From Bernardetiaceae bacterium (GTDB lineage Bacteria; Bacteroidota; Bacteroidia; Cytophagales; Bernardetiaceae): a DNA stretch of 64,000 nt. The translations under genes and the position numbers were made by a program. Position 1 is the first letter of the stretch, and every line of letters begins with the position of its first letter. Under the pieces are notes generated by a model that saw only the letters and a program-made list of their open reading frames with translations, did not search any database and was not told the DNA's origin. The DNA lies in contig JAFIER010000200.1 in NCBI GenBank assembly GCA_020832465.1, forward strand, positions 1 through 64,000, in the 5' to 3' direction. This document shows positions 1,800-41,697 of this stretch, piece by piece.

Positions 1800-2160
1800 G
1801 GATTATAAGTTTAAGCGCAATTTGGCGCAAATTTTGTATTTGCTTGTTTAATACTATTGGGATTTTTCCCAAAGCGATTACGTATCATGCGTAATTGTTC
1901 ACAAATATAAGGGCAAATTTTAAAATAAGCAAAAAAATATATATGTTTTTTAAGTATTTGTAAATAAGCAAACTTAGCTGTTTTTTTTTATCTTTTTTCA
2001 ATAAAATAAGCTGCCTATAAAATCGCATTAAGTAAAATTTTATATCCAAAATAACGCATAATACAATACAATATATAGGTAATCCATCAAATGCAAATCT
2101 TGAGGTTAAGATGCTACAAAGCAAAAAATAAATAGCAAATACTTTTTGTATAAGCCGCTT

Positions 2161-2284
2161 CATACTACATAGACATTCAGCGGTCAGAAACAACATTTCT
2201 CTGAAAAATGTTATTTCTAAGCCCCTTTTTCCATAGCCTATGGGGTTTGCAACCCCCACATTATGGAAAAATGTATAGTGCTAT
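2161..2284 (+). mobile_element. Miniature inverted-repeat element, complete copy with 9-bp target duplication
   Basis: The ends are CATACTACATAGACATT and AATGTATAGTGCTAT, imperfect inverted repeats of each other. Directly outside both ends is the same 9-mer AAGCCGCTT (2152-2160 and 2285-2293), as expected for a target duplication made on insertion. Inside lie two hairpins: an AGAAA..TTTCT arm pair, then a long palindrome TTTTTCCATAGCC...TTATGGAAAAA. There is no coding capacity, so any movement would need a transposase encoded elsewhere. Confidence 0.85.
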
Positions 2285-2361
2285 AAGCCGCTTATATGAG
2301 CGACTAACAGACAAGCTTGCACGAACTTTGCATATTTCGTACATAATATTGGTTTTTATAC

Positions 2362-4548: not shown

Positions 4549-4590
4549 AAATAAGGGTAGTCTTAAAGATGTAATGCTCAAAGTCTTTCA

Positions 4591-4661
4591 AAACTAACAG
4601 TTCTCAAAGAACTGTTAGTTTCCACTTCAGAACTAACAGTTTTCCGAAAACTGTTAGTTCT
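4591..4661. repeat. Two tandem AACTAACAG palindromes
   Basis: The first palindrome (4591-4621) has 14-bp perfect arms around CAA. The second (4629-4661) has 15-bp perfect arms AGAACTAACAGTTTT / AAAACTGTTAGTTCT around CCG. They lie just 3' of the second Skp gene. Neither is followed by a run of T, so they are not textbook intrinsic terminators, although the stems are strong. The same palindrome recurs at 8240, 11007, 30258, 42645 and 52025. Confidence 0.85.
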
Positions 4662-4754
4662 AAGTCCAAATGCCACAGCAGCACAGTATGATAAAATCCA
4701 TAACAATCAAATTTAATGATGTTATGGATTTTGTGTTTTTTACTTATGCTTGTC

Positions 4755-4876
4755 CATACTACTATACATTCGCTAGCCAGAAATAACATTTCTTTGAGAC
4801 ATGTCTTTTCTAAGCCCTTTTTTCCATAGCGTAGGGTTTGCAAATTCCAAGCTATAGAAAAATGTATAGGGGTATG
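4755..4876 (+). mobile_element. Miniature inverted-repeat element, complete copy, 8/9 target duplication
   Basis: The left end is CATACTACTATACATT (4755-4770) and the right end AATGTATAGGGGTATG (4861-4876); they pair as terminal inverted repeats. Flanking 9-mers are ATGCTTGTC (4746-4754) and AGGCTTGTC (4877-4885), identical at 8 of 9 positions. The internal hairpins are as in the copy at 2161. Confidence 0.82.
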
Positions 4877-5056
4877 AGGCTTGTCCTTTTTTGAAGCCTG
4901 CATGCCAAGCCCACAAACAAATTAGTTACAACAATTTTCAAAAAATATTGTTTTTAATTTTCAAATGGGGCCACGGCAAGCATCAAGAACTAAACTAAGC
5001 TCCTCGTTCCCTTATGTAAAAATCTGTAGAAGTGTGGTTTTTTATGTAAAAATGCT

Positions 5057-8568: not shown

Positions 8569-8665
8569 TAAATAACATTTCTCAAAAAAAGGTTATTGCT
8601 AAACCCATTTTTCTATAGCGTGAGGTTTGCAAAGCCCACGCTATAGAAAAATGTATAGTGGTATG
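8569..8665 (+). mobile_element. Miniature element, left end lost
   Basis: It contains part of hairpin 1 (AAATAACATTTCTC), the long palindrome CTATAGCGTGAGGTTTGC / GCCCACGCTATAG, and an intact right end AATGTATAGTGGTATG. The left terminal repeat is missing, so no target duplication can be tested. Confidence 0.7.
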
Positions 8666-11311: not shown

Positions 11312-11379
11312 CATATACTACTACTATACATTCGCTCGCTCGCCAGAAATAACATTTCTTTGAGAAATGTTATTTCTAA
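11312..11379 (+). mobile_element. Miniature element, right half lost
   Basis: The left end is a slightly expanded CATATACTACTACTATACATT-like terminus, followed by a triplicated CGCT and a perfect hairpin 1 (AGAAATAACATTTCT / AGAAATGTTATTTCT). The second palindrome and right terminus are absent; the capA-like gene ends 26 bp further on. Confidence 0.7.
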
Positions 11380-11404
11380 AAAAATCTTTTGAGCTTTGAT
11401 GCGG

Positions 11405-14076: not shown

Positions 14077-14210
14077 AAAAAAAGGCTTAAACAAAATGAT
14101 AAAACTTTGCGTGGCTTATACTTTTTTTACTTTTTATCGTTATTTTAGGGGGTAGATGTAGTCAATACAGACTAAAAACTTGTATTTTTGCCATGAATAT
14201 TATTGCGTTT

Positions 14211-14317
14211 CATACCACTATACATTTTTCCATAGCGTGGGGGGGGCAAACCCCACAGGCTATGGAAAAAAGAGCTTAGAAATAACATTTCTGGCCGCTG
14301 AATGTCTATGTAGTATG
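14211..14317 (-). mobile_element. Miniature inverted-repeat element, complete ends with perfect 9-bp target duplication
   Basis: In this reversed copy the ends are CATACCACTATACATT and AATGTCTATGTAGTATG. ATTGCGTTT is repeated exactly on both sides (14202-14210 and 14318-14326). The long palindrome is intact apart from a run of seven G; one arm of hairpin 1 is deleted. The left end in element orientation (CATACTACATAGACATTCAG) is the same as in the copy at 2161, so these two share a recent source. Confidence 0.88.
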
Positions 14318-14459
14318 ATTGCGTTTAGATATTAGCAATAGTTTAGCTTTAGCAAAATTACATAAGATTAGCAACTTTTGAGTGGGGTGGGCAAAAATTT
14401 ACGAAAAGACTTTTTCTACAACTCCATTTCTCAAGTTGAAAACAAACATAACAAAAAAT

Positions 14460-18231: not shown

Positions 18232-18272
18232 TGTTTGGTGAGGATAGCAAATACGGCAGTGGAACTAACATT

Positions 18273-18321
18273 AAATTTTTAGAAATAACATTTCTGCCAG
18301 AAATGTTATTTCTAAAAATTT
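18273..18321. repeat. Perfect 23-bp-arm hairpin, remnant of a miniature element
   Basis: AAATTTTTAGAAATAACATT... pairs perfectly with its complement over 23 bp around GCC. It is hairpin 1 of the miniature element. A decayed second palindrome (TTTCCATAGTGTAGCGC...) follows to about 18362. No terminal repeat is left. It sits between the convergent LysM and DUF1573 genes, where it may also stop transcription. Confidence 0.75.
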
Positions 18322-18444
18322 TTCCATAGTGTAGCGCTTATAAAGCCTATAATATGAAAAAAAACGTACTTAACTGCTTAGTGCAGTCAAAGGTATTAAA
18401 TGTCAAATGGTTAGACTATGAGAAATGTTAGTTCTTTTAAAACC

Positions 18445-21623: not shown

Positions 21624-22405
21624 TTGTCTATATAATTTCTTTATTTCAAAGAATTTGATTTATCATAAAACTAAAAAGGAGCGGCTCAGGCGAGCTACTC
21701 GGCTTTGGCACACAAATTTCGTAATTTTTAGCATAAAACACTAATTTTGCTTACCAAATCATTATACAAATAAAACAAGTTCTTTGCCAAATGACTTATT
21801 CTGTCATAATGGCAGTTATTACGCAGGAGCAAACAGCAAAAGCCAATACACATGCTTTTGACTTGAATACACGTATATTTGCATAACAATTCTGCTTATT
21901 TACAGATTGTAAAGATATTGTAAATGCTAAATAAGTAAGGTTACAAAAATAACAGCCCTTTTTATTATTTCTAAGCCCATTTTTCTATTATAGTGTGAGG
22001 GTTGCAAACCCCAAGCTATAGAAATAAAAATGTATGACGGTCTGAGTATATTTGAAAGAAATAAGGTTTGTTATGCACTTTTTTACTGCTTTTTCTTAAA
22101 TTTGATTTATTTTTTGTATATGCGTGCAACCTGATAGTGCTTTAACGCATCTATAAAATAGTAAAATAGTTAGGTAAGACTTAGCATACGTACTGCTTTA
22201 GCAAGACAAAAAAACGTTATTTTGACAAAATGATTACGAAATAGTTGTTTTTTTGAACAAAAAAGGTAAAAAAGCATCTAAATCGATGTTTTTTACGTAT
22301 AAAGTAAGTAAGTATATAATGATTTACCCTGCAAGTTTGTTATTATAGTGCAGAGGATACTCAATGCTTAATCAAAATAAATTTCACACTTAAAATAAAA
22401 GAGAT
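21624..22405. other. Long intergenic region between divergent grpE and the low-complexity protein gene
   Basis: 782 bp of AT-rich DNA. It contains a decayed miniature element at 21962-22036. No open frame with protein-like composition is present, and I found no clean promoter pair. Both neighbouring promoters must lie here. Confidence 0.5.
21962..22036 (+). mobile_element. Decayed miniature element
   Basis: It starts at TTATTATTTCTAAGCCC, keeps the long palindrome (TATAGTGTGAGGGTTGC / GCAAACCCCAAGCTATAG) and ends in AATGTATGACGGTC, a mutated right terminus. The left half is absent. Confidence 0.6.
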
Positions 22406-26968: not shown

Positions 26969-27013
26969 TTCTGATTTGCGTTGAAAAACGATAATCATTA
27001 CATCAAACAATAC

Positions 27014-27058
27014 AAAAATGGCTTTTTCTTGTTATATACAAGGAAAAGCCATTTTTTT
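27014..27058 (+). terminator. Intrinsic terminator after gldJ
   Basis: AAAAATGGCTTTTTCTTG and CAAGGAAAAGCCATTTTT form a long stem around TTATATA, followed by a T-run. It separates gldJ from nadD transcription. Confidence 0.8.
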
Positions 27059-27079
27059 CAATTCATATATCCCACTACC

Positions 27080-27137
<58 letters not shown>

Positions 27138-27148
27138 TATCTGTTGTT

Positions 27149-27724
27149 ATGCGTATTGCTTTGTTTTTTGGCTCTTTTAATCCCGTGCATATTGGGCATT
27201 TGATTATTGCACAAACTGTAGCAGAATCTGACTTTGTAGAACAAGTATGGTTTGTGGTCTCGCCACAAAACCCATTCAAAAAAAAATCAACACTATTACA
27301 CGAGTTTGATAGGTATGATATGTTGCAAGCTGCTATTGCGGATAACGAACTTTTGGAAGTTACAGACATAGAATTCGAACTGCCACGCCCAAGTTATACA
27401 ATTGATACGCTGATTCATATACAAGAACGCTATCCAGAAGCAGAGTTTAGATTGCTTATCGGTGAGGACAACCTCAAGCACTTTCATAAATGGAAAAATT
27501 ATGAGCAAATACTCAAGCACTTTGGCTTACTTATCTATCCACGCCCAAACACCGAAAAAACAGACTTTCACACACAGCAAAATGTACAGTTTGTAGAGGC
27601 ACCGCAAATAGAAATCTCTTCTACATACATACGCAAGAGAATCAAAGCGCAGGCATCGCTCCGCTACTTAGTACCTGATATTGTAAATCAAATTATCAAA
27701 GAGAAGAGTTTTTATCAGAGTTGA
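27149..27724 (+). CDS. nadD: Nicotinate-nucleotide adenylyltransferase
   Basis: 191 residues from ATG 27149. Motifs: FFGSFNPVHIGHLIIAQ (nucleotidyltransferase GxFxPxHxGH), VVSPQNPFKK, LLIGEDNLKHFHKWKNY (IxGxDN type), and the C-terminal ISSTYIRKRI. It converts nicotinate mononucleotide and ATP to deamido-NAD in NAD synthesis. The reading frame is open 56 codons further upstream through the microsatellite, but the protein family begins at MRIALFFGS, so that extension is rejected. The 3' end overlaps convergent suhB by 10 bp. Confidence 0.93.
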   Translation: MRIALFFGSFNPVHIGHLIIAQTVAESDFVEQVWFVVSPQNPFKKKSTLLHEFDRYDMLQAAIADNELLEVTDIEFELPRPSYTIDTLIHIQERYPEAEFRLLIGEDNLKHFHKWKNYEQILKHFGLLIYPRPNTEKTDFHTQQNVQFVEAPQIEISSTYIRKRIKAQASLRYLVPDIVNQIIKEKSFYQS

Positions 27725-29779: not shown

Positions 29780-29852
29780 AGCGAGAAACGAGATTCGAAC
29801 TCGCGACCTCAACCTTGGCAAGGTTGCGCTCTACCAGCTGAGCTATTCTCGC
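29780..29852 (-). tRNA. tRNA-Gly (GCC), second copy in transcript order
   Basis: 73 nt. The acceptor GCGAGAA pairs with TTCTCGC; the D-loop is AGCTGGTA; the anticodon arm is CAACC TTGCCAA GGTTG with anticodon GCC; the T-loop is TTCGAAT. CCA is not encoded. It is identical to the copy at 30017-30089. Confidence 0.97.
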
Positions 29853-29898
29853 TTATTTTGAAGTAAGAACAAATTTTTTGGTTGTTTTATAATTATTG

Positions 29899-29983
29899 TA
29901 CCAGGAGTGGGAATCGAACCCACACGGACGCAATGTCCACAGGATTTTAAGTCCTGCGTGTCTACCAGTTCCACCACCCCGGC
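29899..29983 (-). tRNA. tRNA-Leu (UAA)
   Basis: 85 nt with a long variable arm (GGACATTGCGTCC). The anticodon arm is CAGGA CTTAAAA TCCTG with anticodon UAA; the T-arm is GTGGG TTCGATT CCCAC. The acceptor GCCGGGG pairs with TCCTGGT using three G-U pairs (1-72, 4-69, 7-66), more than usual. It lies between the two tRNA-Gly copies. Confidence 0.95.
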
Positions 29984-30016
29984 AACCGAAACTTATCACT
30001 TTTGATAAGCTTTCTG

Positions 30017-30089
30017 AGCGAGAAACGAGATTCGAACTCGCGACCTCAACCTTGGCAAGGTTGCGCTCTACCAGCTGAGCTATTCTCGC
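30017..30089 (-). tRNA. tRNA-Gly (GCC), first copy in transcript order
   Basis: 73 nt, the same sequence as 29780-29852. It is the first of three tRNAs on the minus strand, probably one transcript ending at the terminator 29737-29772. Confidence 0.97.
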
Positions 30090-31356: not shown

Positions 31357-31462
31357 CATACTATTATTAGACATTTTCTATCCAGAATTAACATTTCTTT
31401 GAGCAATGTTATTTCTAAGCCCCTTTTTCCATAACGTTATGGAAATATATATATGTAGTATG
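31357..31462 (+). mobile_element. Miniature element, both ends recognisable, no clear target duplication
   Basis: The left end CATACTATTATTAGACATT and right end ATATGTAGTATG are mutated terminal repeats. Hairpin 1 (AATTAACATTTCTTTGAGCAATGTTATTTCT) is present and the second palindrome is shortened (TTCCATAACGTTATGGAA). Flanking 9-mers GAAACTTGT and AGCGCTTAT do not match well, so this looks older or its ends were altered. Confidence 0.68.
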
Positions 31463-41591: not shown

Positions 41592-41697
41592 CATACTATT
41601 ATACATTTTTCATAGTTTAGGGGCAAAGCCCGCACGGCGCTATAGAAAAAGAGCTTAGAAGTGACCTCTCTTGTAGAAACTTTCACATTATTTCTAA
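41592..41697 (-). mobile_element. Decayed miniature element (reversed)
   Basis: It starts with an intact end CATACTATTATACATTTTTC, continues with the eroded long palindrome (CATAGTTTAGGGGCAAAG / CCGCACGGCGCTATAG) and AAAAAGAGCTTAGAA, then a mutated hairpin 1. The other end is lost. Confidence 0.65.

What the first reader, a model, noticed from the sequence alone, without database searches (positions are those of the whole stretch)
2152..2293. A new miniature transposable element family with 9-bp target duplications
Three copies (2161-2284, 4755-4876, 14211-14317) have terminal inverted repeats of the type CATACTACTATACATT, two internal hairpins, and flanking direct 9-mers: AAGCCGCTT/AAGCCGCTT, ATGCTTGTC/AGGCTTGTC and ATTGCGTTT/ATTGCGTTT. 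Duplications of 9 bp point to a DDE-type transposase acting in trans. About nine further fragments lie elsewhere in this window, always between genes. No transposase is present, so the autonomous partner must be elsewhere or lost.
Basis: seen in the sequence. Interest (0 to 1): 0.85.

Follow-up and report, generated by a model that had tools for sequence, protein, structure and literature searches.

The report
Jumping mini-elements with borrowed hairpin cores
Hundreds of ~120-bp DNA elements in this bacterium are real non-coding transposons, most likely moved by the transposase of a small insertion sequence found in the same genome, and their hairpin centres are shared with unrelated elements, so ends and centres seem to be swapped separately.

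Summary
The window lies in a draft Bernardetiaceae-like (Cytophagales) genome with about 495 copies of the CATACTACTATACATT terminus (9 in the control). In a 1.2-Mb sample, 98 end pairs were found (1 in the control). Flanking duplications are exactly 9 bp. Paralogous empty sites carry one 9-mer. Its relatives in Persicobacter, Spirosoma and Bernardetia-like genomes have similar ends and exact 9-bp duplications. One hybrid pairs a MITE left end with the last 31 bp of this IS between perfect 9-bp duplications, so one transposase used both ends. As a MITE family this is a new member of a known kind. The less expected part is modularity. The same ends enclose at least five unrelated hairpin cores, while the same cores sit inside other MITEs with different ends and duplication lengths (6 and 8 bp) or stand alone. 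Hairpin 2 keeps its pairing by compensatory changes; its exact pattern was found only in Cytophagales among 84,980 species. What the cores do is unknown.

The parts
2161..2284 (+). MITE copy 1 (hairpin 1 then hairpin 2), right end lacks the terminal G
2152..2160 (.). left 9-bp target duplication AAGCCGCTT
2285..2293 (.). right 9-bp target duplication AAGCCGCTT
2186..2218 (.). hairpin 1 of copy 1 (AGAAACAACATTTCT...AAATGTTATTTCT)
2226..2271 (.). hairpin 2 of copy 1 (TTTTTCCATAGCC...GGAAAAA)
4755..4876 (+). MITE copy 2
4746..4754 (.). left duplication ATGCTTGTC
4877..4885 (.). right duplication AGGCTTGTC (1 mismatch)
14211..14317 (-). MITE copy 3 (inverted; hairpin 1 half deleted)
14202..14210 (.). 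left duplication ATTGCGTTT
14318..14326 (.). right duplication ATTGCGTTT
8570..8665 (+). truncated copy, right terminus CATACCACTATACATT (minus strand) at 8650-8665
   Evidence: E 3.7e-25
31358..31444 (+). partial copy
   Evidence: E 1e-16
21943..22044 (+). partial copy
   Evidence: E 1.3e-15
41592..41697 (-). partial copy with terminus CATACTATTATACATT at 41592
   Evidence: E 7.3e-12
11319..11385 (+). partial copy: terminus and hairpin 1
   Evidence: E 7.8e-12
18271..18362 (+). partial copy / hairpin 1
   Evidence: E 1.2e-11

Best explanation
The element is a non-coding MITE of about 122 bp: 16-bp terminal inverted repeats (consensus CATACTACTAGACATT / CATACTACTATACATT) around two palindromic hairpins. 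It is cut and pasted in trans by the DDE transposase of an IS4-family insertion sequence resident in the same genome (G000:C277:26832-28055, 1224 bp, ends CATACTACTAGACAAA, 384-aa transposase), with a 9-bp staggered cut that prefers ATNNNNNAT-like targets between genes. Shown by sequence: end pairing, 9-bp duplications, empty sites, similar ends and equal duplication length in the IS clade, and one MITE/IS-end hybrid that moved as a unit. Inferred: that this exact IS copy is or was the active source, that the pathway is cut-and-paste as in other IS4 elements, and that hairpin cores are acquired separately from the ends, for example by capture between two ends or by gap repair.
For: Exact 9-bp TSD: 46 of 98 pairs have at most 1 mismatch and 28 are perfect; other lengths are at background. 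Empty sites: the copy at L202:14885-14977 (TSD GTGGGAGCT/GTGGGAGGT) sits in another repeat, and the paralogs L186:591-667 and L193:17779-17696 carry one exact GTGGGAGCT, with two more nearly so. Partner: DDE_Tnp_1 5.5e-22, NCBIfam IS4_2 1.1e-43, ends at both tips. The IS clade uses similar ends and 9 bp: Persicobacter (43% aa) CATACAGCTAGACATT/CATACAACTAGACATT with ATTCGGGCT and GTGAATGTT duplicated; Spirosoma (40%) CAGACTACTGGACA with TAAATCCGC; Bernardetia-like genomes (35%) TACAGTACTGGACATG with 9 bp. Hybrid L035:766-908: MITE left end plus the last 31 bp of the IS (31/31), with GGTTTGGAT on both sides (9/9); the MITE's own two ends there match 1/9. Sister-genus genomes carry CATAC-ended MITEs with perfect 9-mers.
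Against: The MITE shares only about 14-16 terminal bases with the IS, so descent by internal deletion is not shown. Only one full IS copy is assembled, and its contig stops at the IS right end, so its own duplication cannot be seen; the left flank ATAGCTAAT fits the target consensus. The hybrid is a single case. Copies are old (median pairwise divergence 17%), so present activity is unproven. The NCBIfam IS4_2 score (149.7) is just under its cut-off of 152.
Confidence: 0.88

Rival explanations
1. The MITE was spread by a different, now lost or unassembled, member of the same IS clade with ends CATACTACTAGACATT, and the C277 IS only cross-mobilised one MITE.
For: MITE ends read ACATT, whereas the C277 IS reads ACAAA; Persicobacter and the decayed G004 copy have ...GACATTTTT ends. 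MITE copies are old while only one IS copy is present.
Against: The hybrid L035 shows the C277-type right end working together with a MITE end. No other IS of this clade was found in the genome.
Confidence: 0.35
2. The units are REP-like hairpins spread by a RAYT (Y1 transposase) or by recombination, and the terminal repeats are incidental.
For: Hairpin 1 and its variant occur without the ends (131 of 273 and 93 of 117 in the sample); the genome has three Y1_Tnp genes.
Against: Y1 transposition makes no target duplication (own knowledge), whereas 9-bp duplications and empty sites are exact here. No such hairpins lie beside the three Y1 genes. Many hairpin copies without CATAC ends are in fact the 8-bp-TSD MITE.
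Confidence: 0.03
3. The copies are kept because the hairpins work as RNA or DNA signals (transcript ends, RNase targets, protein sites), and mobility is only how they spread.
For: Hairpin 2 keeps its pairing through compensatory changes (60 double-change cells against 19.8 shuffled; 21 distinct perfect arm pairs against 1.1 expected), and recurs in several mobile families and alone.
Against: Its T-stem-A layout is not an intrinsic terminator. Placement among intergenic types roughly matches length expectation. Palindromes can also be kept perfect by template-switch repair without selection.
Confidence: 0.25

Closest known systems
MITECca01 / ISCca4 (IS982) of Cardinium (PMC9769881)
   Same: Bacteroidota; short non-coding element with ends of a resident IS, high copy number, mostly intergenic or in other mobile DNA
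   Different: IS982 family, ~240 bp, likely derived from its IS; here the IS4 family, 9-bp TSD, only the ends shared, hairpin cores from elsewhere
IS4 family, IS4Sa-like subgroup (De Palmenaer 2008, PMC2266710)
   Same: size 1224 bp within 1150-1750, CA ends, 9-bp duplication within 8-10, YREK motif
   Different: the shared ends CATACNNCTRGACA were seen here only in a Cytophagales clade; subgroup placement was not tested by a tree
MIC231 / IS231 (IS4 family) mobile insertion cassettes (own knowledge; PMC6542083 came up but was not read)
   Same: non-autonomous DNA moved by an IS4-family transposase
   Different: IS231 makes 10-12 bp duplications and MICs carry passenger genes; here no gene and two hairpins
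TIMEs, Tn3-derived mosaic miniature elements (PMC4133298, abstract only)
   Same: short ends mobilise what lies between them, giving mosaics, as the MITE/IS hybrid here suggests
   Different: Tn3 ends, 5-bp duplications, replicative transposition (own knowledge)
Correia/NEMIS and other bacterial palindromic small repeats (PMC2229807)
   Same: intergenic, hairpin-forming, high copy
   Different: TA-type termini and a different transposase type; no core exchange of this sort noted in the passages read

Membership tests
MITE | short (<300 bp) and non-coding | tested here: met
   69-149 bp, mode 122; no transposase inside
MITE | terminal inverted repeats found paired | tested here: met
   98 pairs in 1.2 Mb against 1 in reversed control
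MITE | target duplication of constant length | tested here: met
   9 bp only
MITE | empty sites with a single target copy | tested here: met
   paralogous empty sites; orthologous loci of close relatives not available
MITE | ends shared with a transposase-bearing element | tested here: met
   IS at C277 and hybrid L035
MITE | mobility in trans by that transposase | not testable with these tools
   needs a transposition assay; hybrid L035 is the nearest sequence evidence
IS4 family (the partner) | DDE transposase with YREK (Y-2-R-3-E-6-K) | tested here: met
   YPLRWQIEVCFKHLK read from the translation; Pfam DDE_Tnp_1
IS4 family (the partner) | NCBIfam IS4_2 curated cut-off | tested here: inconclusive
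   149.7 bits against cut-off 152, far above every other family
IS4 family (the partner) | target duplication of about 10 bp | tested here: met
   9 bp in clade relatives; the own copy runs into a contig end
IS4Sa subgroup | phylogenetic grouping with IS4Sa transposases | not tested
   only size, CA ends and duplication length fit
REP/RAYT | no target duplication; linked Y1 transposase | tested here: not met
   9-bp duplications; no hairpins beside the Y1 genes

The most novel reading that the evidence does not exclude
In Cytophagales, MITE ends and palindromic cores are independent modules. One IS4-type pair of ends carries at least five unrelated hairpin cores, and the same cores travel inside MITEs with other ends and other duplication lengths (6, 8 and 9 bp). 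The cores are kept as structures, so they form a class of portable palindromes with a function of their own that is repeatedly recruited by mobile ends.
Probability: 0.35. Interest if true: 0.72.

Novelty: new variant of a known kind. Interest (0 to 1): 0.55.

Why it matters
It supplies a clean bacterial MITE/IS pair, with a hybrid that directly links them, in a lineage where no such family was found described in the papers searched. More generally, it makes the question of where MITE cores come from testable: ends and palindromic cores can be tracked separately across one bacterial family, and the covarying hairpin 2 asks what a palindrome must do to be kept by so many unrelated carriers.

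Tried and rejected
Rfam at gathering thresholds gave only tRNAs in the window. The two other DDE_Tnp_1 genes in the genome (L031 IS5-like, L033 IS701-like) carry no CATAC ends, so they were rejected as partners. 'ACAAAA' ends in short (~82 bp) copies looked like IS-derived ends but are better explained by deletion of hairpin 2 in the MITE. RAYT linkage was tested and not found. IS1595 as the partner of the second MITE: no gene found. Orthologous empty sites were not tried: no second species of this genus is held. Some joined-flank BLAST hits were other repeats with no clean TSD (L170, L183, L189) and were not counted as empty sites. A chance origin of the hybrid was rejected because 31/31 bases match the IS and 9/9 bases match in the duplication. 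The absence of any transposase in the window was only partly tested: PF01609, PF01797 and PF12762 have no hit there, and ten ORFs near the copies are not transposases by Pfam.

Full report
OBSERVATION. The three copies, their ends and their 9-mers are as described. A profile made only from copies chosen by ends plus duplication (plus window copy 1) finds the three copies and six further partial copies at about E<=1e-11 in the window, and more hairpin-only matches. The genome (G000, 4.6 Mb, 289 contigs) has 252+243 sites within 2 mismatches of CATACTACTATACATT against 4+5 for the backwards pattern. In 1.2 Mb of it (26%), 98 end pairs lie 30-400 bp apart (1 in reversed sequence), and 260 separate places match the profile (0 in reversed sequence), with 82 nearly full-length hits. 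Scaling gives about 300 near-full-length copies genome-wide (an extrapolation; the sampled stretches were partly chosen because contigs were long or known to hold copies).

DUPLICATIONS AND EMPTY SITES. Aligning the flanks of every pair, identity at 9 bp is 0.66 (98 pairs) or 0.71 (an earlier, overlapping set of 68) and stays at 0.29-0.37 for 5-8 and 10-14 bp. The duplicated 9-mer prefers A/G-T at one end and A-T/C at the other (AT.....AT). One copy (L202:14885-14977, GTGGGAGCT/GTGGGAGGT) lies in a member of another repeat. Several paralogs without the MITE align straight through, two of them (L186, L193) with exactly one GTGGGAGCT. A second copy (L179:19168-19291, ATTAAAAAT twice) behaves the same way within alignment noise.

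PARTNER. Of three DDE_Tnp_1 genes in the genome, one lies in an element with the MITE's ends: C277:26832-28055, 1224 bp, CATACTACTAGACAAA at both tips, transposase of 384 aa without stops. It is IS4 family: DDE_Tnp_1, NCBIfam IS4_2 at 1.1e-43 though 2 bits under the cut-off, and the YREK signature is readable as YPLRWQIEVCFKHLK. Size, CA ends and duplication length fit the IS4Sa row of De Palmenaer et al. 2008 (PMC2266710), but no tree was made. Relatives of this IS in Persicobacter (43% aa), Spirosoma (40%) and Bernardetia-like genomes (35%) have ends CATACAGCTAGACATT, CAGACTACTGGACATT and TACAGTACTGGACATG, and exact 9-bp duplications. The MITE consensus end CATACTACTAGACATT thus falls within the end signature of this IS clade.

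HYBRID. At L035:757-917 (C194) the order is GGTTTGGAT, a complete MITE, then the last 31 bp of the IS (31/31 identical), then GGTTTGGAT. The duplication belongs to the MITE left end plus the IS right end (9/9); the MITE's own two ends match 1/9. The simplest reading is that a MITE landed in an IS copy at ATAGCTAAA, a 9-mer present at that place in the intact IS, and MITE end plus IS end then moved as one unit. This is direct sequence evidence that one transposase accepts both ends. It is a single case in a draft assembly.

LOCATION AND AGE. One of 46 TSD-bearing copies overlaps an ATG ORF of at least 100 aa, while such ORFs cover 77.5% of the sequence. Within intergenic space there is no clear preference for tandem, convergent or divergent gaps. 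Copies differ from the consensus by 6-20% and from each other by a median of 17%, so this family is not a recent burst.

MODULARITY. Three observations point the same way. (i) Same ends, different cores: in related genomes, pairs of CATACTACTAGACATT-type ends, many with perfect 9-mers, enclose a GGTCAG...CAGACC core (G001, G004), a GACCTCTCCC core (G008, G001) or a GTTGAGG/CGTTGACGG core (G008) instead of hairpins 1 and 2. One copy in the own genome (L074:12529-12649) has a further core, GAAGCTCCAGCTTC. (ii) Same cores, different ends: hairpin 2 lies in a 170-bp MITE of Flexibacter sp. CG_4_10_14_3_um_filter_32_15 with ends CAAYATGAGTGACATTT and apparently 6-bp duplications, in elements of UBA2561 with CTCTACCCTAC-like ends, and alone in other Cytophagales. 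A form of hairpin 1 is the core of a 91-bp MITE of the own genome with GGTAGT ends and 8-bp duplications. The GGTCAG core occurs both with at least one CATAC end (12 of 30 loci) and without (18 of 30). (iii) Structure is kept: the hairpin-2 search pattern left the two arms free, yet 21 of 32 distinct arm pairs are perfectly complementary (1.1 expected on shuffling), with 60 double-change cells against 19.8 shuffled. Either the palindromes have a function, or they are kept perfect by template-switch repair; the data do not separate these.

NOT SHOWN. Transposition was not observed. How ends acquire cores is inferred; capture between two ends (as in TIMEs, PMC4133298) or gap repair after excision are candidates.

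VERDICT. A real MITE family, not found described in the papers searched, with a resident IS4-family partner: ordinary in kind, well supported. The exchange of ends and covarying cores is what lifts it above routine.

Noticed in passing
L056:6978-7068, L062:7437-7527 and others; truncated copy in window from 4556 through the hairpin at 4590-4622: A second MITE family in the same genome: 91 bp, ends GGTAGTGTATAACAAGTAATGC / GGTAGTCTTAAAGATGTAATGC, 8-bp duplications, 35 copies in 1.2 Mb and 111 termini genome-wide, median pairwise identity 100%: a very recent burst. Partner transposase not found (no IS1595-type gene).
   Followed up: partly
L072:3911-4001: The 91-bp MITE inserted in a hairpin-1 loop (duplication TCTTTGAG), probably of a CATAC-type element, showing the relative age of the two families.
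   Followed up: partly
L089, L097, L101, L114, L130 and others (Flexibacter sp. PFKD contigs): 170-bp MITE with ends CAAYATGAGTGACATTT and apparently 6-bp duplications, carrying hairpin 2.
   Followed up: partly
L074:12529-12649; also flanks of L031 and L033: Palindrome around CGAAGCTCCAGCTTCG, another dispersed hairpin of this genome, found once as the core of a CATAC-ended element.
   Followed up: no
L186:591-667, L193:17696-17779, L062:15568-15653: A further dispersed repeat (TTTGTGGGCTTAATC...CGTGGGAGCTAAAAAGCC) that serves as host for a MITE insertion; its nature is unknown.
   Followed up: no
window 29780-30089: Two tRNA genes in identical 75-bp repeats (29780-29852 and 30017-30089) flank a third tRNA on the minus strand.
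   Followed up: no
window 27072-27139: ATCT tandem repeat inside an open reading frame (26981-27724); possible phase-variable site.
   Followed up: no
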